Origin: an uncultured Flavobacteriaceae bacterium
GTDB taxonomy: Bacteria > Bacteroidota > Bacteroidia > Flavobacteriales > Flavobacteriaceae
Assembly (NCBI GenBank): GCA_947494695.1
Contig: CANLWB010000004.1
Coordinates: 248,001-312,000, forward strand
DNA length: 64,000 nucleotides
Direction of reading: 5' to 3'
Part shown: positions 5,176-55,800 of the stretch, one piece after another
How the letters are laid out: the number at the start of each line of letters is the position of its first letter
Numbering within the stretch: the stretch's first letter is position 1
Notes under the pieces: generated by a model
What the model saw: the letters and a program-made list of their open reading frames with translations, nothing else
The model's database searches: none
Told to the model about the DNA's origin: nothing
Program-made: the position numbers and the translations under genes

Positions 5176-5204
5176 TTAATATTATTAATAATTAACATAG
5201 TTAA
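5176..5204. promoter_or_regulatory. operator A, tandem TTAAYnnnRTTAA palindromes, divergent promoters
   Basis: TTAA tetramers lie at 5176, 5185, 5192 and 5201 (offsets 0, 9, 16, 25), making palindromes 5176-5188 and 5192-5204. On the right, TAACTTTG at 5217-5224 fits the Bacteroidota -7 element TAnnTTTG, 12 bases from the operator edge. On the left strand, TACTTTTA at 5163-5156 is also 12 bases away. The operator thus lies over the -33 region of both the lyase/hydratase operon (minus) and the aldehyde dehydrogenase gene (plus). Confidence 0.75.
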
Positions 5205-5259
5205 CTAATTTTTTTATAACTTTGGAAATAGTTATATTAATTAAATAAGACTAAACCTT

Positions 5260-6672
5260 ATGAAAATTAGAAACCCCAGAACAGGGATATATGATTATAA
5301 TTTATTGGTTGACTCAAATGATGTTATAGCAGCAAAATCTACCGAAATTAGAAACGCTCAAAAAGCTTGGAATGAAAATGGTGTAGAAAAACGGGTTGCT
5401 GTTGTGCAAAAGTGGTTAGAGAGTTTAAAGAAATATCAAAATGAAATAGCAGAACAATTAAGTGTTGATACGGCTCGAAAAAGTATTTCATCTGTTGAGG
5501 TTACAGGTGTTTTAGGGCTATTACAAGCATGGTGTTATAGAGCGCCTCAATTATTAGCTCCAGCAAATGAACGGCCATCAATGTCTGCCAATACCGTAAT
5601 GGTGCAACAACAATGGATTCCTTATGACGTGATAGGTGTTATAAGTCCGTGGAATTTCCCTTTATTATTAGCATTAATAGACACAGTGCCTGCATTGTTA
5701 GCTGGTTGTGGGGTGTTATTAAAACCTAGTGAAGTCACACCGCGTTTTATGGATGGCCTTGAAAAAAGCATTAATGAGGTACCTGAATTAAACAAAGTTT
5801 TAAAGTTGGTACGTGGTGGAGCAGAAGCAGGAAAGGCAGTAGTACAAAATGCCGATGCTATTTGCTTTACAGGTAGTGTGCCTACAGGTAAAAAAATAGG
5901 TGCTGTTTGTGCGGAGCGTTTTATTCCTGCGTTTTTAGAATTAGGGGGTAAAGATCCTGCTGTTGTTTTGGCTGATGCCGATTTAGAAGTGGCTACAGAT
6001 GCGGTTTTGAGAAGTTGTGTTGGAGCTACAGGACAAGCATGTCAATCTTTAGAGCGTATTTATGTAGATCAAACTATTTATGATGATTTTGTGCATTTAA
6101 TTACTGATAAAGCTGAAAAAGTAACCTTAACCACCGATCCTGAAAACGGACAAATGGGGCCCTTGATTTTTCAAGCGCAAGCCATAAAAATACAAGAACA
6201 AATTGATGATGCAGTTTCTAAAGGAGCCCAAATTTTAGCAGGAGGTAAGGTTGAAACTATTGATGGTGGGTTGTGGTGCAGACCAACGGTTTTAATACAT
6301 GTAGATCATCGTATGAAAGTAATGACTGAAGAGACTTTTGGGCCAATAATACCAATCATGGCTTTTTCTACAGAAGATGAAGCGCTAGAGCTAGCTAATG
6401 ATAGTATTTATGGATTATCATCGTCTGTGTTTTCAGCCAACAAGGAAAAAGCTATTGAAATAGCATCTAAAATGGAAGTTGGAGCCGTAAGTATAAATGA
6501 TGGGAGTTTAACCAATAAAGTTTTTGATGCCGAAAAAAATTCCTTTAAAGAATCTGGAATTAATGGCTCTAGAATGGGAGATGCAGGTTTTTTAAGGTTC
6601 TTTAGAAAGAAAGCCATGTTAATACAAACAGCAAAACCAGAAACCATGGCGAATTTTGAGGAAAAACAGTAG
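5260..6672 (+). CDS. NAD(P)-dependent aldehyde dehydrogenase
   Basis: At 470 aa it is full length for the ALDH superfamily. It shows SPWNFPLLLAL (N132), FTGSVPTGKK, the general base E227 in FLELGGKDP and the catalytic C261 in GATGQACQSLERI. The family oxidises aldehydes to acids. It is a single-gene transcript driven by the right-hand promoter of operator A, and its stop is five bases from the convergent reductase gene at 6678. The ASKETCH-free C-terminus and short N-terminus resemble semialdehyde dehydrogenases, but the substrate cannot be assigned. Confidence 0.88.
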   Translation: MKIRNPRTGIYDYNLLVDSNDVIAAKSTEIRNAQKAWNENGVEKRVAVVQKWLESLKKYQNEIAEQLSVDTARKSISSVEVTGVLGLLQAWCYRAPQLLAPANERPSMSANTVMVQQQWIPYDVIGVISPWNFPLLLALIDTVPALLAGCGVLLKPSEVTPRFMDGLEKSINEVPELNKVLKLVRGGAEAGKAVVQNADAICFTGSVPTGKKIGAVCAERFIPAFLELGGKDPAVVLADADLEVATDAVLRSCVGATGQACQSLERIYVDQTIYDDFVHLITDKAEKVTLTTDPENGQMGPLIFQAQAIKIQEQIDDAVSKGAQILAGGKVETIDGGLWCRPTVLIHVDHRMKVMTEETFGPIIPIMAFSTEDEALELANDSIYGLSSSVFSANKEKAIEIASKMEVGAVSINDGSLTNKVFDAEKNSFKESGINGSRMGDAGFLRFFRKKAMLIQTAKPETMANFEEKQ

Positions 6673-6677
6673 TATTT

Positions 6678-7679
6678 TTAAAGTTTCACTACTACTTTTC
6701 CACAACTCTTTCCAGCTAGTAAATATTCTGAAGCATCAATAATAGACGCAATACCGTTAAATTTTACAGGGTCTACTTTTACTTTAAGTAGACCTTTTTG
6801 ATATTGATTAAATAAAAAATCTCTGGCCTCAGGGTGTTGATCCTTGTATAAGTGATTCATAAAACAACGCACAGAAGCACCTTTCCAATAGATACTTTCA
6901 TAAACTCGTGGAGCAGTGATTTCTTGAAATTTGCCTTCATTAATTTCGGTAGCTAAACCGCTAACAACCAATCGTCCTAAAGGCGCCAGATTGTTTAAAA
7001 AAGCATCAAACATATGCCTTCCAACAGAATCAAATCCTACATTAATTTTAGAGGCATAATGATCATTTAAATAGGCTTCAATGTTTTGTTTTTTATGATT
7101 TAATATAACATCGCAGGCGTTAAGACTTTTTAGTAAAGCTTCCTTTTGAGAGGATCCGCAAATACCAACAACATGACAGCCTTTTTGCTTAGCCAATTGC
7201 ACAAGGATATGTCCTAAACCGCCAGCAGCGGCAGACACAACTATGGTTTCACCAGGTTTTAGTTCTGCTACATTTTTTATGGCTAAATATGCGGATACCC
7301 CAGTAGGGTTTAGTGTGAGGTATTCTGGAGTGGCTTCAGGAATTTCAATATATTCTGCCTCCGTAATGACTTGATATTCTTGATAAGCGGTGCCTACTTT
7401 TACGGTTGAAACAGTATGACCTACTTTCACTTTTTTTATATTTCTACCAACCTCTATAACTTCTCCAACGGCTTCTACACCATATACATAAGGAAAGGTA
7501 ATATTGATGTAAGGCACATGACCTCTGTATAATTCTCGGTCGTATAGCGCATTTATACCAACGTACTTGTTTTTAACTAATATTTCGTTAGCATGTATTT
7601 TAGGTATAGGGTTTGAAATTAAACGTGTTGCATTTCTAATATCATTAGAAAATGATGAGATGACCAGTTGATTATTCAT
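6678..7679 (-). CDS. quinone oxidoreductase-like MDR reductase
   Basis: This 333-aa protein of the medium-chain dehydrogenase/reductase superfamily has the GroES-like N-terminal half (NKYVGINALYDRELY, VEAVGEVIEVG) and a nucleotide-binding motif AAAGGLGHILVQLAK. I see no structural-zinc Cys cluster, so it belongs with zinc-free quinone oxidoreductases and enoyl reductases, which use NADPH. It is the last gene of the leftward operon 11456-6678, two bases from the next reductase. Reduction of an activated C=C bond in a pathway intermediate is likely; the substrate is unknown. Confidence 0.8.
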   Translation of the reverse strand: MNNQLVISSFSNDIRNATRLISNPIPKIHANEILVKNKYVGINALYDRELYRGHVPYINITFPYVYGVEAVGEVIEVGRNIKKVKVGHTVSTVKVGTAYQEYQVITEAEYIEIPEATPEYLTLNPTGVSAYLAIKNVAELKPGETIVVSAAAGGLGHILVQLAKQKGCHVVGICGSSQKEALLKSLNACDVILNHKKQNIEAYLNDHYASKINVGFDSVGRHMFDAFLNNLAPLGRLVVSGLATEINEGKFQEITAPRVYESIYWKGASVRCFMNHLYKDQHPEARDFLFNQYQKGLLKVKVDPVKFNGIASIIDASEYLLAGKSCGKVVVKL

Positions 7680-7681
7680 GG

Positions 7682-8716
7682 TTATAGGTGTATTGGTTCT
7701 GCTATTTTAACGAGTTGCTTTCCTTTATTTTTTCGTTCAAAAAGACGATTTAATGCATTTGGCATTTGTTCTAAACCTTCTAATACGTCTTCTTGGTAGG
7801 ATAATTTGCCTTCTAAAATCCATTGTGTCATATCTTCTTCGGCCTTAGGAAATTGGTCTTCAAAATCATAAATAAAAAACCCTTGCATTTTAGACCGTGT
7901 TGCTCCTATTCTATGCCAGTTTTTTAATGCATATTCTGGAGAGCTTTGTAAGGTTTTTTCATATTGTGAAATTCTTCCGCAGATCACTACTCTGGAATAG
8001 CGTTGTAATTTACTCAAGGCGATATCAAGAATTTCACCGCCAACATTATCAAAAAATATGTTGATGCCCTTAGGAAAGAAATGATCTATACGTTCACTAA
8101 CATTTTCTTTTTTGTAGTTAATGGCGCCATAGTAGCCCAGTTTTTCGGTTAGGAGTTTACATTTTTCATCGGTGCTGGCTAAACCAACGGCCTTGGCATT
8201 CTTAATTTTTGCCAGATTTCCTATACTTGAACCGACACCCCCAGTGGCTGCCGAGACCAAAACGTTGTCCTTGGCTTTTAATTCACCAACATGATAGAGT
8301 CCAAAATAGGATGTAAAACCGGTCATACCTAAAACACCCAAAGCCGTAGAATAGGGGACTTTGTTTTGTTTTATTTTATACATCATATGATAGGGGGTGC
8401 CATCACAAATTTTATATTCTTGCCAGCCGCATTTACCCTGAACGACATCGCCAACCTTGAAATTTGAATTTTTACTTTCAATAACCTGTCCAACACCACG
8501 TCCCCGCATGGTTTCTCCCAATTCTAAAGGGGCTTCAATGCCTGCGCCATCTATCATATAAAACTTCATTACTGGTGCAACAGACAGGTATAAAATTTTA
8601 ATAAGAAACTCTTCATTTTTTAAAGGGGGAAGCTCTACCTCGTCCATTTTAAAATTGGAGTTTTTTATTAACAAACCTGTTGGGCGTTCGGCTAGCACTA
8701 AGCGTTTATTTTTCAT
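7682..8716 (-). CDS. NADP-dependent 2-alkenal/prostaglandin reductase-like (CurA/PTGR family)
   Basis: At 344 aa, with LAERPTG at the start, YLSVAPVMKFYM, MRGRGVGQVIES, and a dinucleotide site SAATGGVGSSIGNLAK, it matches the leukotriene B4 12-hydroxydehydrogenase/CurA branch of MDR enzymes. These reduce alpha,beta-unsaturated ketones or aldehydes with NADPH. The C-terminal YDFEDQFPKAEEDM and GLEQMPNALNRLFERKNKGKQ are also typical of the family. It lies in an operon with an MFS carrier, a CpeT-like protein and a lipoprotein. Having two C=C reductases in tandem suggests stepwise saturation of a conjugated molecule. Confidence 0.82.
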   Translation of the reverse strand: MKNKRLVLAERPTGLLIKNSNFKMDEVELPPLKNEEFLIKILYLSVAPVMKFYMIDGAGIEAPLELGETMRGRGVGQVIESKNSNFKVGDVVQGKCGWQEYKICDGTPYHMMYKIKQNKVPYSTALGVLGMTGFTSYFGLYHVGELKAKDNVLVSAATGGVGSSIGNLAKIKNAKAVGLASTDEKCKLLTEKLGYYGAINYKKENVSERIDHFFPKGINIFFDNVGGEILDIALSKLQRYSRVVICGRISQYEKTLQSSPEYALKNWHRIGATRSKMQGFFIYDFEDQFPKAEEDMTQWILEGKLSYQEDVLEGLEQMPNALNRLFERKNKGKQLVKIAEPIHL

Positions 8717-8722
8717 AACAGA

Positions 8723-9484
8723 TTATTTTTTTGTAAGTATAAAAAGGCTGTCGGGTAATGTTTCATTTACCTCAAAATCATCCCAGAAAATCTCATTAGT
8801 CAGCTTGTTGTTGTAAAAAAGAGATACTTTACCAGACTGCAACCAGCTGTATTTTTCTTTTTTGAAAAAATCTGAATATATCCGATGATGCCATCCCTTG
8901 GGAGTTTGAAAGGCTACTTTTAAAATTTTATAGTCTTCTTTTGCAATACCAAAAAACGTTTCTCCTTTATTGGGATCAATAACTTTTATGTGGTGCACGG
9001 GTTTATTAGAAATCGTGTCGTCTGGCATTAATTCTAGTTGATATCCCTGGTCTAATGCATGTCTAATAACACCAAAACCAAAATTAGATGCCCAATTTTT
9101 ATCTGCGCTGGATTGTTCTTGTTTACCCGTTAAATCATAAGTGTTTTTACCATCAAACGTTATTATAAATGCGGGGTTACCGTTTTTAAAAGATTCAATT
9201 CTAACTTTACCGTTAGCAGTATGGGCATTCTCTTTAGTGTTTTCAAAAACCCGCCACATATTGTGCTTTTCATGTATAACGGGACCGTCATAGTAGAAAA
9301 CACCGTGCCCTTTTAATGTTAAACTATGAGGCCTACGCCAAAATGCTCCACCTGCTTTTTCATGGGCTTTCTTTATGATATATTTTGCCGAAATCGCTTT
9401 ATTTTCCTTCTCCCTTTTCTTCTTAGGACTAGCACAATTGCACAAGAAAATAAGAGAAGTTAGGCATGCTAAAGTTGTTTTCAT
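8723..9484 (-). CDS. lipoprotein of unknown function, LolA/LolB-like appearance
   Basis: This 253-aa protein starts with a lipoprotein signal peptide whose lipobox ends at C17 (FLCNCAS). The rest is beta-rich with alternating strands (SLTLKGHGVFYY, FIITFDGKNTYDLTG, VHHIKVIDPNKGETFF, KVAFQTPKGWHHRIYSDF), the look of LolA/LolB-type half-barrels that carry hydrophobic ligands between membranes. I do not recognise a named family with certainty. It sits between a CpeT-like gene and the CurA-like reductase in one operon, so ligand handling in the periplasm or at the outer membrane is a guess. Confidence 0.6.
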   Translation of the reverse strand: MKTTLACLTSLIFLCNCASPKKKREKENKAISAKYIIKKAHEKAGGAFWRRPHSLTLKGHGVFYYDGPVIHEKHNMWRVFENTKENAHTANGKVRIESFKNGNPAFIITFDGKNTYDLTGKQEQSSADKNWASNFGFGVIRHALDQGYQLELMPDDTISNKPVHHIKVIDPNKGETFFGIAKEDYKILKVAFQTPKGWHHRIYSDFFKKEKYSWLQSGKVSLFYNNKLTNEIFWDDFEVNETLPDSLFILTKK

Positions 9485-9495
9485 GTTTGTAGTGT

Positions 9496-10209
9496 TTAGT
9501 TATCGCAATCTTTTTCTTTTAAATTTATGGTAGGTCCCTTGTCGTTTACTCCAAAAACCAGGTTACCATTTTTATCTACAGCCGTATCGTCCAATAAAAG
9601 CGCATCTTTTCTTAATATTAAAGTTTCATTTAAATATACCTGAGTGTTGAATTTTTTAGAAAAATAACTACAGGCATTAGGTTTAAGATAACCTTCAAAT
9701 TGGTTATTTTTCTTTTTCCAAAACACATCGCAACCAGGTTTTAAAAAGAAATCATCTTTACTTAGAGTTTTTAAAATTAAAGGTTCAAGGTGTAGGCCAA
9801 TGAGTTTATCGGGGTTTTTAGGCGTGTAAATCGTTAATCTTATGGCTTGTTCTTCTTCATCTATGGTGAATGCATAAATACGCTGTCTGTAAATATCATT
9901 TAAATTGTAGTGTTGCGATTGTTGTGCATATAAAAGTCTGCCAGGAATAAAATCAATCTTAACTGGTAAGAAGATATGATGTGTTTGCCTGTGACGTCTT
10001 TCTTGCGGAAGATCATTAACAGCTTCTTTGTACACCTGCTGGTGATTATCGTATTCGCCGGGAAACCATTCCAGTAGTTCTATAAGATCTTTTTCAAGTG
10101 ATGCATATGTTGCCTTTTTTTCTTCTTGCGCGTTTACTTTTATGCCAGCTAAAATTATGAATATTAGAGCATACAGTAATAAGAAGGTTTGCCTTATATT
10201 TTTCTTCAT
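9496..10209 (-). CDS. exported CpeT/CpcT-like protein (bilin lyase fold)
   Basis: At 237 aa it has a signal peptide ending near NAQEEK. The mature part follows the CpeT/CpcT plan: LLEWFPGEYDNHQQ, YAQQSQHYN, DIYRQRIYAF, PGCDVFWKKKNNQFEGYL, ALLLDDTAVDKNGNLVFG. In cyanobacteria and cryptophyte/red algal systems CpcT attaches phycobilin to Cys of phycobiliproteins. No phycobiliprotein is expected in this organism, so this exported relative more likely binds or processes a bilin-like or other ligand. Its start overlaps the MFS stop by four bases (ATGA). Confidence 0.78.
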   Translation of the reverse strand: MKKNIRQTFLLLYALIFIILAGIKVNAQEEKKATYASLEKDLIELLEWFPGEYDNHQQVYKEAVNDLPQERRHRQTHHIFLPVKIDFIPGRLLYAQQSQHYNLNDIYRQRIYAFTIDEEEQAIRLTIYTPKNPDKLIGLHLEPLILKTLSKDDFFLKPGCDVFWKKKNNQFEGYLKPNACSYFSKKFNTQVYLNETLILRKDALLLDDTAVDKNGNLVFGVNDKGPTINLKEKDCDN

Positions 10210-11456
10210 GTTTTTATCAATTTAATTTTAGGTATTAATACCATGACAATGCTGGCTGAAACAATATGCAAAAGCGCTACAATAATGAAAACAGGAGCAT
10301 AGGAGATCTCATCGACCAACCAGCCTATAAAAGGAGTGAATAGCATAGCACCAAAACTTCCGGCAGAACCGGATATCCCCCAAACAGAAGCGGCATCTTT
10401 TTTAGAAAATAAATCTATGGGCAAGGTAAATAATGCAGATTGTTTAAACTGAGTAGCAAAAAGGGCAAAACTAATTAAGCCTATGGCCCAGTATGGAGAT
10501 GTGGTGTTAAGGCAGCCTAAAACAGGAAGTACGAGTATGGCTCCAATCCAAATAATCCATTTTCTGGATGCATTTATGGATAATCCTTTTTTTATAAGTT
10601 TGGTTCCAGACCAACCTCCCATAAAACTCCCAATGTCTGAAAGTACAAAAGGAATCCAGGCAAATAGACCAATTTCAACCAAGCTAAATCCTTTTTCATC
10701 GGTCAGATAGGAGGGAAGCCAGAATACAAAAAAGTAAAAAACGCCATCTGAAACGAATCGAGATAATGCCACACCCCAAACTTCTTTATGTTTAAAATAA
10801 TGAAGCCATGGTGTTTTGGGGTGTTGCATTCCACCATTGCTTTCTTTTGAAATAAGGTTTAATTCTTCTTTAGATATTTTAGGATGCTTTTTGGGGACAT
10901 GATATATTTTTTGCCACAAAATCAACCATAAAAAGCCTATAGCACCCGTTATAACAAAAGCCATTTTCCATCCAAAAGATAGGATTAACCAGGCCATGAG
11001 TGGTGGTGCTATTATGGCGCCCATCCCAGGCCCCATGTTTAATATTCCAACGGCTTTACTACGTTCACTTTTAGGAAACCATTCTGAAATTACTTTCATA
11101 GCGGTAGGATAGTTTGCGGCTTCTCCAATCCCCAATAAAAACCTAAAAAGGCCTAAACTAGTAAACCCTCGACTAAAGGCATGCAGCATATTTGCCACAG
11201 ACCACCAAATTACAGCGATGCTAAAACTCTTTTTAGTGCCAATTCTATCAATAATAGGGCCTGAAACGAGTTGCATAATGGCATAAGCCAATAAAAAGAG
11301 ACTTACAATCCAGCCATATTGCTCATTAGAAAGCTGAAGATCTTTTTTAATTATAGGGGCTGCCACAGACAATGCCTGACGATCAATGTAATTAACAGTC
11401 GTCGCCAAAAAAATCGTACCTACAATGTACCACCTTAAATTAGTTTTAGTCGCCAT
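10206..11456 (-). CDS. MFS transporter, ACS/hexuronate-type anion symporter
   Basis: Start taken at ATG 11456 (MATKTNLRWY, 416 aa); an upstream in-frame ATG at 11507 adds 17 residues not typical of the family. Twelve hydrophobic segments and the motifs NYIDRQALSVAAP, GPIIDRIGTKKSF and RFLLGIGEAANYPTAMK match the anion:cation symporter branch of MFS, which carries sugar acids, phthalate-like and other organic anions. It heads the leftward operon with the CpeT-like protein and two reductases, and probably takes up an acidic substrate or intermediate across the inner membrane. Confidence 0.83.
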   Translation of the reverse strand: MATKTNLRWYIVGTIFLATTVNYIDRQALSVAAPIIKKDLQLSNEQYGWIVSLFLLAYAIMQLVSGPIIDRIGTKKSFSIAVIWWSVANMLHAFSRGFTSLGLFRFLLGIGEAANYPTAMKVISEWFPKSERSKAVGILNMGPGMGAIIAPPLMAWLILSFGWKMAFVITGAIGFLWLILWQKIYHVPKKHPKISKEELNLISKESNGGMQHPKTPWLHYFKHKEVWGVALSRFVSDGVFYFFVFWLPSYLTDEKGFSLVEIGLFAWIPFVLSDIGSFMGGWSGTKLIKKGLSINASRKWIIWIGAILVLPVLGCLNTTSPYWAIGLISFALFATQFKQSALFTLPIDLFSKKDAASVWGISGSAGSFGAMLFTPFIGWLVDEISYAPVFIIVALLHIVSASIVMVLIPKIKLIKT

Positions 11457-11507
11457 GTGTTTATTAATAGGTATTTGTTTAAGACTAAACCTGTAAGCAA
11501 AAGCCAA

Positions 11508-11528
11508 TTTGTATAGTCATTATACAAA
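11508..11528. promoter_or_regulatory. inverted repeat TTTGTATA-N5-TATACAAA upstream of MFS operon
   Basis: A perfect 8-bp inverted repeat with a 5-bp spacer lies 52 bases upstream of the MFS start at 11456. This operon lacks the RTTAAY operator, so the repeat is a candidate separate control site. It also abuts the terminator at 11525-11559, so it may only be part of that structure. Confidence 0.3.
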
Positions 11529-11559
11529 AAAGAATGGCCTATAATAGTACCATTCTTTT
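11525..11559 (-). terminator. rho-independent terminator after DUF1838 gene
   Basis: On the minus strand the arms AAAAGAATGG (from 11559) and CCATTCTTTT pair perfectly over ten bases and run into a T-rich tract. It lies 44 bases past the DUF1838 stop and separates that unit from the MFS operon. Confidence 0.75.
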
Positions 11560-11602
11560 AAGGCTAAAAATCAGTTAGTTATTAGTTAGAGTGTTATTTA
11601 AC

Positions 11603-12511
11603 TTATTTCTGTGTACTTACTTTTTTAAAATAGGTCCAACTAGTTTCATTTGGTGATGAATACGTTGTTGGAGCGTGTCTATATTCTGGGTTTTTGGCCA
11701 AAACGTATTCTGTTAATACTTTTGGCATGTTATTATAATTGGGTTCCATGAGTTTGTATCCTGCTCCCTGGTAAACCATATTCCCCGGTCGTTGTGCCAT
11801 TTTCATCCAAGGTAACCATGGCCCTAAACGCGTCCAGGAAATGGTACATGGAATACTAACCTGATTGGGATCATTCATCGCTTTTTCAGAGAAAAAAAAC
11901 TGAAATAATTCTGCTGCTTCATAGTCATCAGACTGTGAGTTTTCTGGAAAATCTTTAATAGGTAAAGGCGAAGGGTACTTCAAAAAGATATCGGCATTCA
12001 TACAAATTTGGTCATCTCCAAATTTTTGATGCGGTATGCCCCATTTACCGTACTTACTTTCCAGTGCTGCTTTTTGATTTACTGGAGAATTCCAAACATG
12101 AACGACATCGACTGTTTCACCTGTATAAGGGTTGTCATATGTTTCCAATACTTCACCTGTTTTTAAATCTGTATACAACAGGACTTCATTGGTTAATAAG
12201 GTATATTTGTTTTCATCAGTTTTAATATATTTACCAATATTATACATTTCAAAGCCCATTAGGGGTTTGTCTCTTTCTCCATCAACAAAACCATAAATTT
12301 TACCGTTGGCGTAGAAAATAACTTCTTCGCCATCTTTTAGAGACCCTCTCACTTTTATAAAAGCGGTCATATTATCTACCGGTTTATCTAAATCCAGATT
12401 TAGGGATTTAGGTGTTTGAGCTAATTCAGTTGAATTATGTTCTGCGCGTTCTTTACAAGAAAAGGTTAGAGATATTATTAGAAGTAAAAAGATTGATGAA
12501 AATGTCTTCAT
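11603..12511 (-). CDS. DUF1838-family lipoprotein
   Basis: This is a 302-aa member of DUF1838, a family with no assigned biochemical role. It has a lipoprotein signal with lipobox C19 (SLTFSCKER). Features shared with the other two copies here (44241, 46234) are an N-terminal ...IKVRGSL..GE/YANGKIYG block, TGEVLETYDNPYTGETVDVVHVWNSPVN, a central CTISWTRLGPWLPWMKMAQRPG and a C-terminal ETSWTYFKK. The repeated pattern of a weighed-in ligand site with many Trp and Tyr suggests binding or modification of an aromatic or flat molecule, but this is inference. It follows the TonB receptor gene across a 195-bp gap holding a hairpin. Confidence 0.8.
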   Translation of the reverse strand: MKTFSSIFLLLIISLTFSCKERAEHNSTELAQTPKSLNLDLDKPVDNMTAFIKVRGSLKDGEEVIFYANGKIYGFVDGERDKPLMGFEMYNIGKYIKTDENKYTLLTNEVLLYTDLKTGEVLETYDNPYTGETVDVVHVWNSPVNQKAALESKYGKWGIPHQKFGDDQICMNADIFLKYPSPLPIKDFPENSQSDDYEAAELFQFFFSEKAMNDPNQVSIPCTISWTRLGPWLPWMKMAQRPGNMVYQGAGYKLMEPNYNNMPKVLTEYVLAKNPEYRHAPTTYSSPNETSWTYFKKVSTQK

Positions 12512-12620
12512 GAGTTTTGTTTTAGGGATTTATGTAATTAAGTTTAATAAAGTTCTAGTCAAAAGAGCATAAAAGTTTAGGCTGTATTGTTTATTTGGAG
12601 ATCAATGCAGCTTTTAAGAA

Positions 12621-12658
12621 GATAATAGCAGAAGAATAGAGATTCTCCTGCTATTATC
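12621..12658. terminator. strong hairpin between TonB receptor and DUF1838 genes
   Basis: GATAATAGCAG at 12621-12631 pairs with CTGCTATTATC at 12648-12658, and the inner bases extend the stem with one mismatch. The flanking T tract is weak in both directions. It may terminate or attenuate the receptor transcript, or stabilise its 3' end. Confidence 0.5.
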
Positions 12659-12706
12659 AAGTCAAAACACTTAACGATTGACTTTTGAATATATCATCTA
12701 TGGTGT

Positions 12707-47139: not shown

Positions 47140-47143
47140 AACA

Positions 47144-47611: not shown

Positions 47612-47626
47612 ATTCATATAATTACA

Positions 47627-48157: not shown

Positions 48158-48220
48158 TGCCGGCTTACATATAGAATAAAAAACGATGCTGAAAATGGAA
48201 AATAAAACATTTAAGAATTT

Positions 48221-49219: not shown

Positions 49220-49782
49220 TGGATAAAGTATTAAAACGATTTACAGATATTCTGTGTGGGACATTAGATAATAAAGCACAAATAGAAGCTGAAAAAAAGG
49301 CAGGGAAACAGGTACATCCCTATGCAAAACATGTTACAGATTTGTTTAGCCATAGAGTACTTAACAGGCCAAAAGAACACGAAGGTATTTATGTTTTAGA
49401 AGAAAGCTATTACACCTATCCTGGTGAGGAAACTTCCATAAAACCACTTTTGTTTTATTTGCGTTCAGACGGAGAACGTAAAGTGTTTTTACAATCTGTT
49501 CAAATACCAGAAAAATTTAGTGCAGAAGACGCTACAAATGCCAATGAAGCTTTCATTTTAGATTTTAATGAGTTATCAATAAGACCTTTTGGTATAGCTG
49601 AATATATTTTGATGGAGACTGATGAGTTTACTACAAATCATATTGGTATCGTAGGTCCGGGAATGACATTTCAGCTTACCGAAACACTTTCTGATCACCA
49701 GTTATCTGTTCTAGAAATTTTAAGAAAAGATGGGGTGAAATTAACACCATATGATACACCAATTATTTACAAGAAAATTTAA
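49219..49782 (+). CDS. small cytoplasmic protein, possibly CpeT-like
   Basis: This 187-aa protein has no signal. RFTDILCGTLDNKAQIEAE looks like the CpeT opening (L..G.fDN..Q), EGIYVLEESYYTYPGEETSIKP like the middle strand pair, and FILDFNELSIRP then TFQLTETLSDHQLSVLEIL like its end. The typical GCD/GC motif is missing, so the link is tentative. It is translationally coupled to the two-domain VOC gene. Confidence 0.5.
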   Translation: MDKVLKRFTDILCGTLDNKAQIEAEKKAGKQVHPYAKHVTDLFSHRVLNRPKEHEGIYVLEESYYTYPGEETSIKPLLFYLRSDGERKVFLQSVQIPEKFSAEDATNANEAFILDFNELSIRPFGIAEYILMETDEFTTNHIGIVGPGMTFQLTETLSDHQLSVLEILRKDGVKLTPYDTPIIYKKI

Positions 49783-49809
49783 AGAAACGTATAATTTAAA
49801 AGAAAGATT

Positions 49810-51033
49810 TTGACAAAAAAAGACGAATCATTTATAAAGGTTTTAGGAGTAGCAGTATTAGGGGCCATACTTTTAATTGTGACTAACGGATTGACATTTT
49901 CGGGTATTACAATTTTTGATGAAGCCATATTAAATGAATTTGGTTGGACAAAATCTCAACTGAAGTTTCGAGACCTGGTCAATTTAATTGCAGCATCCTT
50001 TATAATGCCATTTGTAGGAGCTATCATAGATAAATATGGTGTAAAAAGAATGATGATTATTGGTTTAGCAATGATTGCCATTCTGTATTATCTATACTCT
50101 TTGATTCAAACGACGTTTCATATGTATGCCATTCATTTTGCATTTGCATTCGCAGTTTCTGGTGCAGGAACTTTAGCAACTATAATCATGGTTTCTCAAA
50201 GAGTAACAAAATACAGAGGAACTGCTATAGGAATTGCAATTGCAGGAACATCAGCTGGTGGAATTATTATTCCGCAAATAGGAAAACCTTTATTAGAATC
50301 TTTTGGTTGGCGTACTGCATTTCAATATGAATCTGTATTACCAATTATAGTACTCATTTTACTAGCCATATTAGTAAAGCCCATTAAATATAAAAAGAAG
50401 ACATCTGGGAAAGACGTTAAAAAAGATGAAGAAACTGGTTTGGTGGAAATTAAATTTGCACAGGCACTAAAGTTACCCGTTTTTTGGGCCATTTGTTTTG
50501 CTGGAATTTTTTGTTTTTATAGCATCATGGGGATTATTAGCAATCTGTTTTTGTATTTACGAGAGCTTAATTTTTCTGTTGAAGGAGCAGCAAATGCTTT
50601 TAGTATTTTCTTTGCTATAATTTTAGTTGCCAAGTTAATATCTGGTGTGGTGGCAGAATTAATCAATGAACATATGTTGTTTAAAATACAGGTGGCAATA
50701 ATGGCATTAGGCACTGTAGGAATAGCAATGAATTCAACATCATTGGTATGGCCTTCTTTAATTGCTGTTGGAATTGGTTGGGGAGGACTTTATACGCTAC
50801 TTAACTATATCATAATAACCACTTTTGGAGTTAAATCTGCAGGTAAAATAGGCGGTATTATTTCGGTTTTTGAAGGGGTTGGCTCTGGATTAGGAGCTTG
50901 GCTTACTGGCGTTATTTCGGATAAAACAGGAGATTATAGTACTAGCTTCTGGGTAGTTGTGGTACTGCTTTGTATCGCTTTTCTAGTAAGCTTTTTTATA
51001 AAACCCGTGACTTCAACAGAAACAACCAGTTAA
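49810..51033 (+). CDS. MFS transporter, OFA-like
   Basis: This 407-aa, twelve-segment carrier has FVGAIIDKYGVKRMMIIG in loop 2-3 and GIAIAGTSAGGIIIPQIG in helix 5. A TTG at 49810 is the best start; the next ATGs are far inside. It resembles the carrier at 29209 and ends the operon begun at 45266. A fragment of a close relative lies just downstream (51113). It likely carries a small carboxylate. Confidence 0.82.
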   Translation: MTKKDESFIKVLGVAVLGAILLIVTNGLTFSGITIFDEAILNEFGWTKSQLKFRDLVNLIAASFIMPFVGAIIDKYGVKRMMIIGLAMIAILYYLYSLIQTTFHMYAIHFAFAFAVSGAGTLATIIMVSQRVTKYRGTAIGIAIAGTSAGGIIIPQIGKPLLESFGWRTAFQYESVLPIIVLILLAILVKPIKYKKKTSGKDVKKDEETGLVEIKFAQALKLPVFWAICFAGIFCFYSIMGIISNLFLYLRELNFSVEGAANAFSIFFAIILVAKLISGVVAELINEHMLFKIQVAIMALGTVGIAMNSTSLVWPSLIAVGIGWGGLYTLLNYIIITTFGVKSAGKIGGIISVFEGVGSGLGAWLTGVISDKTGDYSTSFWVVVVLLCIAFLVSFFIKPVTSTETTS

Positions 51034-51811: not shown

Positions 51812-52228
51812 TTATGATATGCTTTCATCGAATGAAGGCTTTCCTGCACCGTTGAATAAAAGAAATAGGCTCATGGCCAACATTACAGATGCGGGCATGG
51901 TCTCGCTAATGCCATGATCTTTTGGAACATGATATACAAAAACGGCTACCATGAAATAAATAATTTCAATTGCAGCAGCGAAACGAACTTTCCAACCTAT
52001 AATTATTAAAATATGGGCTATAAAAATGCTGTAGGATGCTAGATATCCCATTAATGTTGAGGCAGGAATACCCATCCCTGCCAAATTTTCACCGAATTTT
52101 TCGGCATTACTGGGTAAGTATACTTCTGCTTTTATTGCCAAAATAAGATATAGAAAAAAAATAAAACGGATTGGTATTGTGGCATAGGCTTTATAAGTAT
52201 TTAGTTTGCCTAAAATTTTTAAAATCAT
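51812..52228 (-). CDS. DoxX-like membrane protein
   Basis: At 138 aa it has four hydrophobic segments (around 17-35, 57-75, 82-100, 110-128) and the DoxX pattern FGENLAGMGIPAS, YSIFIAHILIIIGW and a C-terminal FLLFNGAGKPSFD. DoxX proteins are small inner-membrane proteins linked to quinone or thiosulfate oxidation and stress, with the role often unclear. It is the last gene of the leftward operon from 55702. Confidence 0.8.
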   Translation of the reverse strand: MILKILGKLNTYKAYATIPIRFIFFLYLILAIKAEVYLPSNAEKFGENLAGMGIPASTLMGYLASYSIFIAHILIIIGWKVRFAAAIEIIYFMVAVFVYHVPKDHGISETMPASVMLAMSLFLLFNGAGKPSFDESIS

Positions 52229-52266
52229 GATTTTGACTTTTGTTTAGTAATTCTGAAATTGTACTG

Positions 52267-52866
52267 TTACAAGTTATCAAGCAGCTTATTAAATTCAATG
52301 ATATACCCATCTGGATCATAAAATATAGCCACAATAACGTTAATCGGTTGCCCACCTTCATAGGCAGGGTATGTTGTTAATGTTGGCTCTTTTATCATTT
52401 CTATAGTTTCAAGTTTTTTTATCGCCTCTAATTTAGTTTCCTGGTCTTTACTATTGAATAATAAAATGGTGTTTTGAGCAGTGAACCCTTCCTTTCTTAT
52501 GGGGTTATTAACTTTCTTTGAATTTCCAAAGTCGTATTCCATTAAACCAAGTACACCATTAAAATTACTTGTAGCTTTTAAAAAGACTAAACGTACTACT
52601 TGGTCTCTGTCTTCTTTTGGGTGAGGTCTGGTAAGTTTATTGTCATAAATAACTTCCATACCTATAATGTCTTTATAGAGCTCCAGAGACTTTTCGATGT
52701 CTCTAACAATAAGTGTTGTTCTGCGAAAGATTAAATGGAAATCTTTAGGTTGTGTGATTTCCTTTTCATCATTACTCTTTTGTTGGGTGTCATTAGTTTG
52801 CCCAATGCATGTATATGACCCCAAAAGAGCTATTGAAGTTGCCATAACAAGAATGATTGTTTTCAT
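52267..52866 (-). CDS. exported single-domain VOC protein
   Basis: At 199 aa it has a signal peptide (SYTCIGQTND) and a VOC module: LIFRRTTLIVRDIEKSLELYKDIIGMEV ... FYDPDGYIIEFNKLL. Arg stands at the first metal position; the final Glu (IIEF) is kept. It is longer than the other single-domain copies and carries TFNGVLGLMEYDFG-like text in the middle. A periplasmic binding or isomerase role is possible. Confidence 0.78.
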   Translation of the reverse strand: MKTIILVMATSIALLGSYTCIGQTNDTQQKSNDEKEITQPKDFHLIFRRTTLIVRDIEKSLELYKDIIGMEVIYDNKLTRPHPKEDRDQVVRLVFLKATSNFNGVLGLMEYDFGNSKKVNNPIRKEGFTAQNTILLFNSKDQETKLEAIKKLETIEMIKEPTLTTYPAYEGGQPINVIVAIFYDPDGYIIEFNKLLDNL

Positions 52867-52870
52867 AATG

Positions 52871-53305
52871 CTATTTTTCTATTAATTGATAAAGAACAAT
52901 TAAGTGCCCATCATAATCAACAAAGGCTTGCTCAATAAATTTCGCATATTCGTTTTCGTCTGTTTTTATAGCAGTAGTTTGTAAATCAAGTGCTTTGATT
53001 TTCGTAATCACATCATCTAAATCATCTACCTTTATAACCGATGCACTCATATGAATGCCATTATGTTTTGGCAATTCAACGCCTTTTACCTCGGTTAAAC
53101 CAAAAGTACGTTCTTGAGTAGGGCTATTCAGGGTTGCAAAATTCAAATCAGCTTCATTTGGAATATTAAAAACAGGGTAAGAGAATGAGTCTTTTTCTGA
53201 GAGTTGAATATAGTTAACAGTAAACCCTAAAATATCTCTGTAAATTTTTAGTGACCGTTCTAAATCTGCAACGCAAAGTGTAATTCTTTTATACAATACT
53301 GACAT
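52871..53305 (-). CDS. single-domain VOC protein
   Basis: This 144-aa protein has no signal: YKRITLCVADLERSLKIYRDILGFTV at the start and FVDYDGHLIVLYQL at the end. Lys/Arg and Val replace the usual metal ligands. It is closest to the exported copy at 47627, so the two may be cytoplasmic and periplasmic versions of the same binder. The upstream gap (53306-53338) carries a partial RTTAAY pattern. Confidence 0.78.
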   Translation of the reverse strand: MSVLYKRITLCVADLERSLKIYRDILGFTVNYIQLSEKDSFSYPVFNIPNEADLNFATLNSPTQERTFGLTEVKGVELPKHNGIHMSASVIKVDDLDDVITKIKALDLQTTAIKTDENEYAKFIEQAFVDYDGHLIVLYQLIEK

Positions 53306-53338
53306 GTTTAAGTAATTTAATAGTTAATAATTTATAAT

Positions 53339-53536
53339 TTATTGGTTTCCCCATCCAGAACCAGCCCTGGCATCTACCCAAACTTGAAATGGCTTTGGAG
53401 CGTTGAGATACGACGTTTTTCTGTCCGTATTGACACTTTCTTCCGGTGTTGGCGTGCTTGTGGCTTCGGTTTTTGTATGGCATGCTACTAAAAAGATGAG
53501 TAGCAAAACTTGAAAATGTTTTAAATGCGTATTCAT
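53339..53536 (-). CDS. small lipoprotein, unknown
   Basis: This 65-aa protein has a clear lipoprotein signal (lipobox C19, FLVACHTK), a Thr/Pro/Glu linker, and a short end PKPFQVWVDARAGSGWGNQ. No family is recognised. It lies 14 bases from the nitrilase-like gene in the same direction, so it is probably cotranscribed and may tether or assist that protein. Confidence 0.65.
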   Translation of the reverse strand: MNTHLKHFQVLLLIFLVACHTKTEATSTPTPEESVNTDRKTSYLNAPKPFQVWVDARAGSGWGNQ

Positions 53537-53550
53537 AAGTACACGTATTT

Positions 53551-54702
53551 TTAATTGGCTGTTTTAGGTGGGTTATATCTACTTATACTATCCATAAGTG
53601 ATTTCATTTCTACACCCGTTTTCGGTAGAGAAGTTTTATCCATATCCAAATGATTTATCGGAATTTCTTGTTTGTATTGCTCAAAAACAGGTTTTGTTAT
53701 TTCCAAAGCATAGTTAGGGATGGTTCTATCTTTTCTAAAAGCAGCTATAGGTATTTTGGCTTCAACAATACCATCGTCTTCTTTACTTGGATGTTTGGCA
53801 AGTATATCTCCATTTGGTCCAACGATAACCGATTCACCGGCGTTATAACCTGTACTAACTGGTAATGTGAAATTTGCCATAGCTGAGTAAAAATCATTAC
53901 TCCACGCGGTAAATACAACATCTTCTTCAGCAAATAGGGTAGCGGTTCGCAGCATGATTTCGGTGCCTCTCATAGCAAAAGCGGCATAAATAAAAGGATC
54001 AAATTGTACAGTGCTCACGGCAATATTTCCAAATTCGGTTCTAAGTACAGGAAACTCTTCTTCTATACCGTATTTCGCTCTATAAGCATCCCGAACCGCT
54101 TCAATAGTGGTTGTAGTTATTTCTCTGTCTTTATAAATGCGTTTTATATTTCTCGATTTCCAGAAGGTTTTAGCAATCTTACCATCTCTTCCCATCACAG
54201 TATTTATACTCAAAATATGATCTGGCCAATTTTGGTCTCGTACATAACTCCCAAAAATGACATAACAATCGCATGCTTGTGCAATTTTTCCAATCCTTAT
54301 GGTTTCAGGACCTGGTACTTCAATGGTGAATGGTAATTTTTCTTGACGTGTTCCAGAAGAATATCCGGTTAAGGGAAACTCATGAAATAAAATAATATCA
54401 GGTTTATGACCTTCATTTTGAGCCTGAGATGCCATGTGTTCCATGTAACTAAGATTTTCTTCAAGGCCTTCTTCAATAGAAGGAAAACTGGAAAGCGACT
54501 TAACTCTGGTTTGCATGACCTTTAAAACAATGGTATCTTTTTCAAGCTGTACTTTTTTATAAGTGCCGTCTGGTTCGACCAAAGTTGTTTTGTTTGTATC
54601 GGTTTTTATATCTACAGTGTCTTGATGCGGTTCTGCTTGTTTACAAGAAGAATACATAAGCATTAGACATATGGTTAATACAAATGGCTTTAGTATTTTC
54701 AT
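53551..54702 (-). CDS. carbon-nitrogen hydrolase (nitrilase-fold) lipoprotein lacking the catalytic Cys
   Basis: ATG 54702 (383 aa) gives a proper lipoprotein signal with C20 (LMYSSCKQA); the longer frame to 54747 overlaps the VOC gene. The nitrilase fold shows the Glu motif LFHEFPLTGYSSG, a Lys region FWKSRNIKRIY, and NGDILAKHP. Where the nucleophile normally lies (GVLICYD), this protein reads IAVSTVQFDP, with no Cys nearby. It may be a pseudoenzyme or bind amides without cutting. Its operon starts at operator I. Confidence 0.78.
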   Translation of the reverse strand: MKILKPFVLTICLMLMYSSCKQAEPHQDTVDIKTDTNKTTLVEPDGTYKKVQLEKDTIVLKVMQTRVKSLSSFPSIEEGLEENLSYMEHMASQAQNEGHKPDIILFHEFPLTGYSSGTRQEKLPFTIEVPGPETIRIGKIAQACDCYVIFGSYVRDQNWPDHILSINTVMGRDGKIAKTFWKSRNIKRIYKDREITTTTIEAVRDAYRAKYGIEEEFPVLRTEFGNIAVSTVQFDPFIYAAFAMRGTEIMLRTATLFAEEDVVFTAWSNDFYSAMANFTLPVSTGYNAGESVIVGPNGDILAKHPSKEDDGIVEAKIPIAAFRKDRTIPNYALEITKPVFEQYKQEIPINHLDMDKTSLPKTGVEMKSLMDSISRYNPPKTAN

Positions 54703-54712
54703 ATTAGGAATG

Positions 54713-55702
54713 TTAAAGTGATTGTATAAATTCAATCCAGACGCCATCAGGAGAAAGCACCGAGAATATTTTTAGTTGTCCATAAGGTTCAACAGTTAAA
54801 GATTGTACTTCACTGTTTAGTGTTATACCGTTTTCAACCAGACGAGCTGCATAGGCATCGGCATTTCTTACAGGGAAGCGATACATTAAAATACCTAGGT
54901 TTGGTGGTTGAGCTAAGTGTGCACAGTTTTTTCCTTTTAAACCAACGGTTTCCAGTAATTCGAGGGAACCATCATTTTCGCCATTTGGATGTAGAATACA
55001 AACAGGAACAGTGATATCGCCGTTAATGCTGGGGGGGACTCCTATTACGTTTGGACCATGACTTCTATTAGCTCCTTCGGTTTCATAGTAAAGCTTAAAT
55101 CCTAATTTGTTAATAAAAAAATCTTGAGTTTTTTTATAATCATTACATATGGTAGTAGAATTAAAAATACGACTTGCTTTCTCAAACTTGAAGCCTTCTA
55201 ATGGCGGGTTAAAACGTTGCATGATAGCAAAAGTGATACCATCTGGCCCTTTTATAAGTACTTCAGAAACATCAAAATTACCGAAGGTAAAGCGGATAGG
55301 GTCTGTATACCCATTCCAACCTTCCATTTGAAGTTTCTTATACATGCTGTTAATGTCTTTAACACGAACATTGACATCAAAAACACCTCCAGAATCCCAT
55401 ACTTGTGTACCAGAACGAATTTGTTCCTGTTCTATAGTATTGAATCTTACTAAACGTAAGAAACCTGTCTTATCCTCTGGGTTTATAAGTAAGGCTTCTT
55501 CGATATCAATAGAAGGGTCTAAATGCCATAAGGTCTTTAAATCGTTACTTCCGGCACCTTGGTGAACCAGCTGCCAACCAAAAATGTTTTTATAAAATGT
55601 AATGGCGCGATCTAGGTTAGAAACGCTAAAAACGATTTCTTGAAAACCTTTAATATCGGGGTCTTGTGCGGAAAAATTGAGATTGTGTTTTAATCTACTC
55701 AT
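54713..55702 (-). CDS. two-domain VOC protein
   Basis: At 329 aa it has two VOC modules (EIVFSVSNLDRAITFYKNIFGWQL; FNSTTICNDYKKTQDFFINKLGFKL) and ends LSPDGVWIEFIQSL. Gln and Ser stand at the first metal positions. It has the same organisation as the 45266 protein, which also follows an operator. It heads the leftward operon from operator I. Confidence 0.8.
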   Translation of the reverse strand: MSRLKHNLNFSAQDPDIKGFQEIVFSVSNLDRAITFYKNIFGWQLVHQGAGSNDLKTLWHLDPSIDIEEALLINPEDKTGFLRLVRFNTIEQEQIRSGTQVWDSGGVFDVNVRVKDINSMYKKLQMEGWNGYTDPIRFTFGNFDVSEVLIKGPDGITFAIMQRFNPPLEGFKFEKASRIFNSTTICNDYKKTQDFFINKLGFKLYYETEGANRSHGPNVIGVPPSINGDITVPVCILHPNGENDGSLELLETVGLKGKNCAHLAQPPNLGILMYRFPVRNADAYAARLVENGITLNSEVQSLTVEPYGQLKIFSVLSPDGVWIEFIQSL

Positions 55703-55771
55703 GTCTTGTGGATTCTATTTTTTTGATTTTGATTGACTTTATATTTAAGACTATAAAGTTAATAAAAATAG

Positions 55772-55800
55772 TTAACATAATAAATGATTAACATAATTAA
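55772..55800. promoter_or_regulatory. operator I, tandem TTAAYnnnRTTAA palindromes, divergent promoters
   Basis: TTAA at 55772, 55788 and 55797 with TAAA at 55781 in place of the fourth (0/9/16/25 with one mismatch). TATATTTA at 55812-55819 (plus) is 11 bases away and would serve the propionyl-CoA carboxylase operon; TAACTTTA at 55761-55754 (minus) is 10 away and would serve the VOC operon. Confidence 0.7.

What the first reader, a model, noticed from the sequence alone, without database searches (positions are those of the whole stretch)
5176..55800. One operator architecture at nine promoter regions
Four RTTAAY half-sites at offsets 0, 9, 16 and 25 (two TTAAYnnnRTTAA palindromes) occur at 5176, 15447, 19787, 22419, 27801, 30609, 45202 and 55772 (one mismatch), and a single palindrome at 39510. 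All 17 palindromes keep Y and R at the inner positions. They lie between divergent operons or just upstream of operons and nowhere inside genes that I saw. This defines a regulon spanning 50 kb. I know no described Bacteroidota regulator with this site.
Basis: seen in the sequence. Interest (0 to 1): 0.88.

Follow-up and report, generated by a model that had tools for sequence, protein, structure and literature searches.

The report
MarR-type operator governing pigment-breakdown genes
The repeated DNA pattern is real and is very probably the binding site of one MarR-type switch protein, encoded just outside the window, that controls an unusually large, conserved gene cluster which may let these bacteria digest light-harvesting pigments (bilins).

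Summary
All nine sites exist; the double palindrome TTAAYnnnRTTAA, centres 16 bp apart, occurs 7 times exactly in the window and 0 times in 1000 intergenic shuffles. Ten of 12 genome hits (up to 1 mismatch) lie in one 64-kb stretch. The refined unit is TAGTTAAY-N3-RTTAACTA.

The regulator is very probably a MarR-family protein 12.5 kb left of the window (L005:7016-7525, minus). Close homologues (82-100%) occur in the same 3 of 60 genomes that carry the operator. A single palindrome lies upstream of its transcription unit in 24 of 27 loci. Four other genomes have 11-16 sites before largely the same genes. Another family keeps one weaker operator in the cluster, with a 45-48% MarR in two of three genomes.

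The regulon is a catabolic supercluster: TonB receptor, CpeT/CpcT-like proteins, lactamase-like HyuAB, two homoaconitase-type hydratase sets, propionyl-CoA carboxylase- and methylmalonyl-CoA mutase-type enzymes; imidase- and maleamate-amidase-like genes lie among them without an operator of their own. My boldest reading, bilin breakdown, rests on gene families alone. Repression is inferred.

The parts
5176..5204 (.). double-palindrome operator between HMG-CoA-lyase-type operon (left) and aldehyde dehydrogenase (right)
   Evidence: exact; operator or two separated singles at the same promoter in 5 of 5 genomes
15447..15475 (.). double-palindrome operator upstream of TonB-dependent receptor operon
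   Evidence: exact; 5 of 5 genomes; alignment
19787..19815 (.). double-palindrome operator between FGE/amine-oxidase/CpeT/cytochrome c operon and alpha/beta hydrolase
   Evidence: exact; FGE side in 3 of 5 genomes, hydrolase side in 1
22419..22447 (.). double-palindrome operator between amidohydrolase and pyruvate-dehydrogenase-type E1/E2 genes
   Evidence: exact; E1 side 5 of 5, amidohydrolase side 3 of 5; alignment
27801..27829 (.). double-palindrome operator upstream of DUF3598 gene
   Evidence: exact; 5 of 5 genomes; in three genomes of another family the one outstanding double lies between DUF3598 and MFS_b
30609..30637 (.). double-palindrome operator between MFS/Flavodoxin_2 operon and second homoaconitase-like operon
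   Evidence: exact; MFS_b side 5 of 5, LeuC_b side 3 of 5
39507..39525 (.). single extended palindrome TAGTTAACTTAGTTAACTA upstream of HyuB operon
   Evidence: exact; 5 of 5 genomes
45202..45230 (.). double-palindrome operator between DUF1838 gene and VOC-family operon
   Evidence: exact; VOC_b side 5 of 5, DUF1838b side 4 of 5; alignment
55772..55800 (.). double-palindrome operator (1 mismatch) between VOC/CN-hydrolase operon and biotin-dependent carboxylase/methylmalonyl-CoA mutase operon
   Evidence: BCCP side 4 of 5 genomes, VOC_g side 2 of 5
674..5068 (-). CoA-transferase III, CMD, LeuD-like, LeuC-like (homoaconitase family), HMG-CoA-lyase-like
5260..6672 (+). aldehyde dehydrogenase
6678..15325 (-). 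TonB receptor, DUF1838, MFS transporter, CpeT/CpcT-like protein, unknown, two zinc-binding-dehydrogenase-family reductases
15742..19721 (-). FGE-sulfatase-domain protein, FAD amine oxidase-like, CpeT-like, cytochrome c
19976..27573 (.). alpha/beta hydrolase (+), amidohydrolase (-), AceE-type E1 and lipoyl E2 (+), unknown (+)
27862..28374 (+). DUF3598 protein, used as a cluster marker
28557..30459 (-). MFS transporter and Flavodoxin_2 protein
30692..39421 (+). LeuC-like, amine-oxidase-like, LeuD-like, HpaI-family aldolase, HapK/REDY-like, SDR, HyuA (caprolactamase/hydantoinase-like), FAD_binding_2
39546..44235 (+). HyuB, methyltransferase, unknown 117 aa, SnoaL-like, CpeT-like
44241..51033 (.). 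DUF1838 (-); VOC, DUF1838, AhpC, VOC, VOC, unknown, MFS (+)
51812..55702 (-). VOC-family protein, carbon-nitrogen hydrolase, two further VOC-family proteins, DoxX-like; the last three follow a 245-bp gap, so their place in the same operon is uncertain
55857..62950 (+). biotin carrier, biotin carboxylase, carboxyltransferase, methylmalonyl-CoA mutase small and large subunits

Best explanation
The sites are operators of one MarR-family winged-helix regulator (169 aa, G000:C4:235016-235525 = L005:7016-7525, minus strand, 12.5 kb left of the window). A dimer recognises the 19-bp palindrome TAGTTAAY-N3-RTTAACTA; at most promoters two dimers bind side by side, centres 16 bp (about 1.5 helical turns) apart, over or next to the core promoter, and keep the promoters on both sides of a divergent pair shut until a pathway metabolite releases the protein. 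The regulator represses its own unit (CN-hydrolase, then marR) through a single palindrome. Shown: the sites, their statistics, their presence before orthologous genes, co-occurrence with this MarR. Inferred: direct binding, dimer stoichiometry, repression, small-molecule induction. The regulon is a catabolic supercluster; the most likely substrate (inferred) is a bilin/tetrapyrrole, opened to lactams and substituted maleimides, hydrolysed to maleamates and maleates, hydrated by two homoaconitase-type enzymes and cleaved to 2-oxo acids plus propionyl-CoA. The confidence below is for the MarR-operator-regulon part, not for the substrate.
For: Chance excluded. 10 of 12 genome hits are in the cluster; the extended single form shows an exact site in front of the marR unit, C4:236630. 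MarR at 82-100% identity is in the same 3 of 60 genomes (own included) that have the exact operator; the next match by E-value is 28% identical (Fisher 3e-5, ignoring relatedness). Of 397 family genomes (own included) the close MarR is in 5 and any exact double in 6, both in 4 (Fisher 7e-8); the four with four or more doubles are these four. In 27 MarR loci an extended single (up to 1 mismatch) lies 1.0-1.5 kb upstream of marR in 24 and a double (up to 2 mismatches) 3-6 kb upstream in 24; reversed single-pattern control 0 of 27. 63 sites in five genomes, 61 within 330 bp of a mapped gene start. A -7-like box TAnnTTTG (5 of 6 or better) begins 12 nt past the operator on 14 of 90 gene-facing sides (shuffled flanks: highest count at any offset, mean 4.5, maximum 7; the sides are from related genomes and not independent), or overlaps its CTA end. 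MarR Pfam hits over cut-off; Foldseek hits shown for the model include HpaR, MepR, MexR, SlyA, MarR and ZitR. In another family (f33) a matrix finds one outstanding double, between DUF3598 and MFS_b, in 3 of 3 genomes, and a 45-48% MarR in 2 of 3, the third being a 24-kb contig.
Against: No binding or expression data. L057 has the MarR but neither upstream site, and its genome (G185) has no exact double. G104 and G126 have one exact double each but no close MarR; probably chance, not tested. In f33 no extended single with up to 2 mismatches was found before the marR unit, and the doubles there score only 10-22 bits against 34-45 for the exact or one-mismatch G000 and G366 doubles. Two genomes of a third family carry much of the gene set with neither MarR nor operator in the 20-40 kb read. 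The predicted MarR model has a mean pLDDT of only 63.
Confidence: 0.87

Rival explanations
1. The sites are bound by the same MarR but it activates: at many promoters the operator lies where a -33 element would be, so the dimer could recruit RNA polymerase instead of blocking it.
For: At a number of promoters the operator ends about 12 nt before a -7-like box. Whether a -33 box lies within the operator was not tested; some sites contain TTG in the middle.
Against: In the HyuB and CN_hyd1-marR promoters of G000 the -7-like box overlaps the CTA end of the operator, which suits occlusion; one operator serves two divergent promoters; repression is the common MarR mode (recalled).
Confidence: 0.15
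2. An unlinked regulator binds the operators and the MarR is merely part of the cluster.
For: No binding data; L057 keeps MarR without nearby upstream operators; in f33 the marR unit has no recognisable operator.
Against: The marR unit carries the operator in 24 of 27 loci and 5 of 5 clusters; no other regulator gene was recognised in the 84 kb read (56 window proteins and 10 of the L005 proteins scanned with Pfam, the rest by eye).
Confidence: 0.06
3. The regulon serves a substrate other than bilins: another N-heterocycle such as a pyrrole alkaloid, chlorophyll fragments or a nicotinate-like compound.
For: Imidase and maleamate-amidase steps are also used in nicotinate catabolism (PMC9304392, PMC5806882 passages); the HapK/REDY-like protein recalls prodigiosin-type pyrroles (recalled); many NCBIfam matches lie below their cut-offs, so reactions are not assigned.
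Against: Four CpeT/CpcT-like proteins, two of which have CpcT phycocyanobilin lyase as their only PDB sequence hit; HyuAB and imidase suit lactam and imide rings; two parallel hydratase sets ending in propionyl-CoA metabolism suit the two maleimide types from bilins (inference).
Confidence: 0.45
4. AT-rich coincidence or a nucleoid-protein motif.
For: The sites are almost wholly A and T.
Against: 0 of 1000 intergenic shuffles give a double; reversed pattern 1 against 12 genome-wide; exact double absent from 57 of 60 genomes.
Confidence: 0.01

Closest known systems
ZitR/AdcR (MarR-family zinc repressors), operator TTAACYRGTTAA
   Same: MarR family; 5-bp inverted repeats TTAAC/GTTAA; one or two palindromes per promoter, overlapping the -35 and -10 boxes in zit (PMC6372160, passages)
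   Different: Here the spacer is 3 bp instead of 2, outer TAG/CTA is conserved, two palindromes are usually set 16 bp apart, and the targets look catabolic, not zinc uptake
HpaR, MarR-type regulator of homoprotocatechuate degradation
   Same: MarR-family regulator of a catabolic operon; sequence hit E 5e-6 (the best sequence hit is YetL, E 1e-9); an HpaR is the top fold hit
   Different: About 23% identity in the fold alignment; different pathway
Bilin lyase CpcT/CpeT (PF06206)
   Same: Cluster CpeT proteins pass the family cut-off; CpeT_b hits CpcT 4o4o at E 2e-7
   Different: Several paralogues in a catabolic cluster of a flavobacterium, with signal-like N-termini (by eye), three of them with an extra C-terminal part
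Nicotinate degradation (HxnM cyclic imidase; NicF maleamate amidohydrolase)
   Same: PuuE/imidase-type and NicF-type genes lie side by side at L005:16622-19155 (PMC9304392 and PMC5806882 passages)
   Different: Here set among homoaconitase-type hydratases, lyases, HyuAB and propionyl-CoA metabolism

Membership tests
MarR family of transcriptional regulators | MarR domain by sequence | tested here: met
   PF12802 40.9 bits (cut-off 27) and PF01047 37.6 bits (cut-off 24.6)
MarR family of transcriptional regulators | winged helix-turn-helix fold | tested here: met
   helix 76-88 and hairpin 92-96/104-108 at pLDDT about 75-87; Foldseek hits shown are MarR-type regulators by the titles that name a family
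MarR family of transcriptional regulators | helical dimerisation part | tested here: inconclusive
   helices predicted but pLDDT about 45-66 towards the ends; dimer not modelled
MarR family of transcriptional regulators | palindromic operator at its own promoter | tested here: met
   24 of 27 loci; 5 of 5 clusters; not found in f33
MarR family of transcriptional regulators | binds DNA as dimer and is released by a ligand | not testable with these tools
   needs biochemistry
ZitR/AdcR subgroup | operator TTAACYRGTTAA with 2-bp centre | tested here: not met
   gap-3 palindromes 18, gap-2 only 2 in the window
ZitR/AdcR subgroup | controls zinc uptake genes | tested here: not met
   none of the targets annotated is named as a zinc transporter
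ZitR/AdcR subgroup | zinc-binding residues | not tested
   only a weak ZitR sequence hit, E 0.009
CpcT/CpeT bilin lyases | CpeT sequence domain | tested here: met
   4 cluster proteins over cut-off
CpcT/CpeT bilin lyases | attaches bilin to phycobiliprotein | not testable with these tools
   needs biochemistry

The most novel reading that the evidence does not exclude
The regulon is a complete, regulated pathway by which these Flavobacteriaceae, several of them from seaweeds, take up and mineralise phycobilins or other tetrapyrroles: secreted CpcT-like proteins capture or strip the chromophore, a TonB receptor imports it, rings are opened as lactams and maleimides, and two homoaconitase-type branches (for example methyl-homoaconitate from hematinic acid) yield 2-oxoglutarate or 2-oxobutyrate plus propionyl-CoA, all gated by one MarR sensing a pigment breakdown product.
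Probability: 0.48. Interest if true: 0.85.

Novelty: new member of a known kind. Interest (0 to 1): 0.64.

Why it matters
It gives one regulator, twelve cluster operators and their genes as concrete targets: a gel shift and one marR deletion would settle the regulon. It also points to a candidate tetrapyrrole-degradation route; how bacteria break bilins down beyond the linear tetrapyrrole is poorly known to me (recalled). My searches of the held papers found no such pathway or regulon: searches returned nothing, one search listed 15 of 2,749 papers and two, of which I saw the listings only. One operator per cluster in another family against twelve here would also make a case of a MarR regulon that changed size around a conserved site.

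Tried and rejected
AT-rich coincidence: rejected. The two intragenic bare palindromes (32629, 40146): rejected as operators; not among the extended sites, number expected by chance. ZitR/AdcR membership: rejected on operator spacing and targets. A fold for DUF1838, to see whether it is another bilin-binding barrel: AlphaFold gave pLDDT 42 with three rows; no fold search was made and nothing is concluded. DUF3598 against PDB sequences: no hit at E 0.1. As a control, 9 loci of distant MarR homologues (L024-L032) held no double with up to 2 mismatches, but each is only about 3.3 kb. Paper searches for bilin, phycobilin or hematinic acid catabolism by bacteria and for CpeT with MarR (15 of 321 listed) listed nothing on this cluster. 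Habitat: of the 27 MarR loci, 6 are MAGs whose names fit the sample code of PMC10233909 (my inference): 5 begin with R, 1 with L (Ulva). R is a red alga, but the methods say Gelidium and Table 1 says Grateloupia. One isolate, 4-528 (L062), comes from Gelidium, though the same paper (PMC12313589, passages) reports its highest read recruitment on Ulva. Baseline counts per alga were not available; this is suggestive only, and the habitat of the window's own organism is unknown.

The first genome search used a wrong spacer (2 instead of 3) and returned 0; repeated correctly.
Full report
The observation. Every listed site was read from the sequence. Seven are exact double palindromes TTAAYnnnRTTAA-N3-TTAAYnnnRTTAA, 55772 has one mismatch, 39510 is single. 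In the window 18 bare palindromes occur against a mean of 2.1 in 200 dinucleotide shuffles; in intergenic DNA (22 segments, 5476 bases) 16 against 0.48, and 7 exact doubles against none in 1000 shuffles. All 7 close pairs have offset 16. Two bare palindromes lie inside ORFs (32629, 40146); that number is what chance gives.

Whole genome. The window is C4:248001-312000 of a 5.49-Mb genome in 77 contigs. With up to one mismatch the double pattern has 12 places: 10 in C4:239937-303800, one on C3 and one on C5; reversed control 1. The extended single pattern TAGTTAAY-N3-RTTAACTA with up to one mismatch has 11 places, 9 on C4 and 2 overlapping the same C3 and C5 sites; control 1. It shows an exact site at C4:236630. 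Counting doubles and separate singles, the G000 cluster has 12 sites. The C3 site (L007 3212-3243) precedes a VOC-like gene (3335..4366 +) that resembles, by eye, VOC_a of the cluster; the C5 site (L008 3382-3410) lies 94 bp before a thioesterase-like gene (named by eye; distance). These two are candidates only.

The regulator. The only transcription factor I recognised in the 84 kb read (window plus L005) is a 169-aa MarR-family protein at L005:7016-7525 minus, the gene after a carbon-nitrogen hydrolase; 56 window proteins and 10 of the L005 proteins were scanned with Pfam, the other L005 proteins were judged by eye, and ORFs under 80-90 aa were not listed. The single palindrome at C4:236630 ends about 30 bp before the start codon of that two-gene unit, and a double (one mismatch) lies at the head of the longer presumed operon ADH-aminotransferase-VOC-hydrolase-marR. 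Among 60 genomes (own included) the exact double occurs in 3 (8, 8 and 4 copies) and a close MarR (82-100%) in the same 3, the next match by E-value being 28% identical; Fisher 3e-5 (ignoring relatedness). Among 397 family genomes an exact double occurs in 6 (8, 6, 5, 4, 1, 1 copies) and the close MarR in 5; the four genomes with four or more copies all have it, the two singletons do not, and G185 has the MarR but no exact double; Fisher 7e-8 for any double against MarR. In 27 loci of the close MarR (titles name Aquimarina, Maribacter, Croceitalea, Muricauda and unnamed Flavobacteriaceae) an extended single (up to 1 mismatch) lies 1.0-1.5 kb upstream of marR in 24 and a double (up to 2 mismatches) 3-6 kb upstream in 24; the reversed single control is 0 of 27. 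Two of the three misses of the double are contig ends (L050, L065); L057 misses both; L046 and L054 miss the single only. Some of the 27 loci coincide with G006, G036, G366 and G185.

Conservation. Seventy cluster proteins were compared with stretches of four other genomes, G006 of the same genus and three of other genera. Most have a match of 50-97% identity, in blocks of kept order (by eye); exceptions include RidA and the aminotransferase (no match in G036, G248), DUF1838a and CpeT_b (only paralogue-level matches in some), and the carboxylase/mutase genes (not in the 80 kb of G036 read, only partly in G248). 63 sites (12, 12, 11, 16, 12) were found; 61 lie within 330 bp of a mapped gene start; 11 first genes carry an operator in 5 of 5 genomes: CN_hyd1-marR, abhyd_a, ADH_a, ALDH, HMGL, TonB, E1, DUF3598, MFS_b, HyuB, VOC_b; DUF1838b and BCCP in 4; FGE, Amidohyd and LeuC_b in 3; the other eight in 1-2. 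At the HMGL/ALDH promoter three genomes have two separated singles instead of the double. In alignments of six promoter regions the operator stands out as a conserved block (at HyuB the end of the preceding gene is conserved too).

Wider distribution. The marker DUF3598 is in 4 of 397 family genomes, the same four that have four or more operators, and in 6 of 395 phylum genomes: G000, three of family f33 and two of f62. In f33 a core of the gene set was found, with a 45-48% identical MarR beside CN_hyd1 and the PuuE-like genes in G440 and G458; G548 is a 24-kb contig without it. A matrix from 44 double sites finds one outstanding site in each of the three f33 genomes (G440 21.9, G458 14.0, G548 9.8 bits; next best -10.5, -1.1, -16.2), each time between DUF3598 and MFS_b. 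These are weaker than the G000 and G366 doubles (34-45 bits), and no single was found before the f33 marR unit with up to 2 mismatches. In f62 neither MarR nor operator was found in the 20-40 kb read. The operator thus seems older than the family, and the regulon larger here; the direction of that change is inference.

How it probably works. MarR proteins are dimers (recalled) and the 19-bp palindrome suits one dimer; two palindromes 16 bp apart (about one and a half turns) would place two dimers on roughly opposite faces (inference). A TAnnTTTG-like -7 box begins 12 nt past the operator on 14 of 90 gene-facing sides (highest count at any offset in shuffled flanks: mean 4.5, maximum 7), and at HyuB and CN_hyd1 in G000 it overlaps the CTA end. 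A larger peak at offset 1 (49 sides) comes from the operator's own CTA and the T tract and was not counted as independent evidence. Occlusion of RNA polymerase, hence repression with release by a metabolite, is the best reading; activation is not excluded, and a -33 box was not looked for. The closest described operator is that of ZitR/AdcR (PMC6372160, passages); spacing and targets differ.

What it controls. Families and PDB sequence hits give: a TonB receptor; MFS transporters; four CpeT/CpcT-like proteins, of which window:9496-10209 and 16235-17236 have CpcT phycocyanobilin lyase as their only PDB hit (E 2.4e-7 and 2.5e-4); a PuuE/cyclic-imidase-type pair; an isochorismatase-fold amidase whose hits include 3ot4/3uao, called NicF maleamate amidohydrolase in PMC5806882 (passages); HyuA/HyuB like caprolactamase and N-methylhydantoinase; two LeuC/LeuD pairs of the homoaconitase family (over the subfamily cut-offs for the two LeuC), one with an HMG-CoA-lyase-like enzyme (over its subfamily cut-off) and a CoA-transferase III, one with an HpaI-family aldolase (below the NCBIfam cut-off); AceE-type E1 (over cut-off) and E2; a biotin-dependent carboxylase; methylmalonyl-CoA mutase (large subunit over cut-off). 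The caprolactamase, PuuE, amidase, CoA-transferase and carboxyltransferase matches are below NCBIfam cut-offs, so exact reactions are not assigned. The imidase link to the PuuE family rests on PMC9304392 (passages). PF06206 is found in 6 of 60 genomes: 3-5 copies in the three operator genomes and one each in three others; those single copies, and one in G006, score much closer to the family model.

Substrate inference. Bilins are cleaved to maleimides of two kinds, hematinic acid and methyl-ethyl or methyl-vinyl maleimide (recalled). Imide and amide hydrolysis of hematinic acid would give a methyl-homoaconitate, the kind of substrate a homoaconitase-type hydratase takes; lyase cleavage would give 2-oxoglutarate and propionyl-CoA, and the regulon contains propionyl-CoA-type carboxylase and mutase genes. 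Lactamase-like HyuAB suits the lactam rings. This is chemical reasoning from families; no activity is shown. The PuuE/amidase/RidA genes have no operator directly in front of them; the nearest upstream one, at 5176, heads the HMGL-to-CoA-transferase operon about 5.5 kb away, so their membership of the regulon is not shown.

Verdict. The finding is real, its regulon reading is supported, the regulator is identified with high probability, and the pathway it may control is the more surprising part. As a regulatory device it is a new member of a known kind.

Noticed in passing
L005:16622-19713 (minus strand), left of the window: Two PuuE/cyclic-imidase-like genes, a maleamate-amidase-like gene and a RidA gene lie in a row, two of them (PuuE_b, amidase) 89-95% identical in all four compared genomes, yet without an operator directly upstream.
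   Followed up: partly
L007 3212-3243 and L008 3382-3410 (contigs C3 and C5 of the same genome): Two operator-like sites far from the cluster, before a VOC-like gene and a thioesterase-like gene.
   Followed up: partly
window 9496-10209, 16235-17236, 43162-44235; L005:14625-15611: CpeT/CpcT-like proteins with signal-like N-termini (by eye); three have an extra C-terminal part, which in CpeT_a and CpeT_d matches a separate lipoprotein-like protein (L005:13015-13767).
   Followed up: partly
G002, G006 (C11), G020, G040: Single CpeT genes of a type closer to the family model (E 4e-43 to 3e-46) outside the cluster; the G020 one has an internal stop.
   Followed up: no
L057 (genome G185 by position): Carries the close MarR but lacks both upstream operators, and G185 lacks the DUF3598 marker; one extended palindrome lies 7.8 kb downstream.
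   Followed up: no
L104-L106 (G695, G751): A third family holds much of the gene set (LeuC_b 75-78% identical) with no MarR or operator in the 20-40 kb read; its regulation is unknown.
   Followed up: no
PMC10233909: Sample letters H and R are assigned to Grateloupia and Gelidium in opposite ways in the methods and in Table 1.
   Followed up: yes
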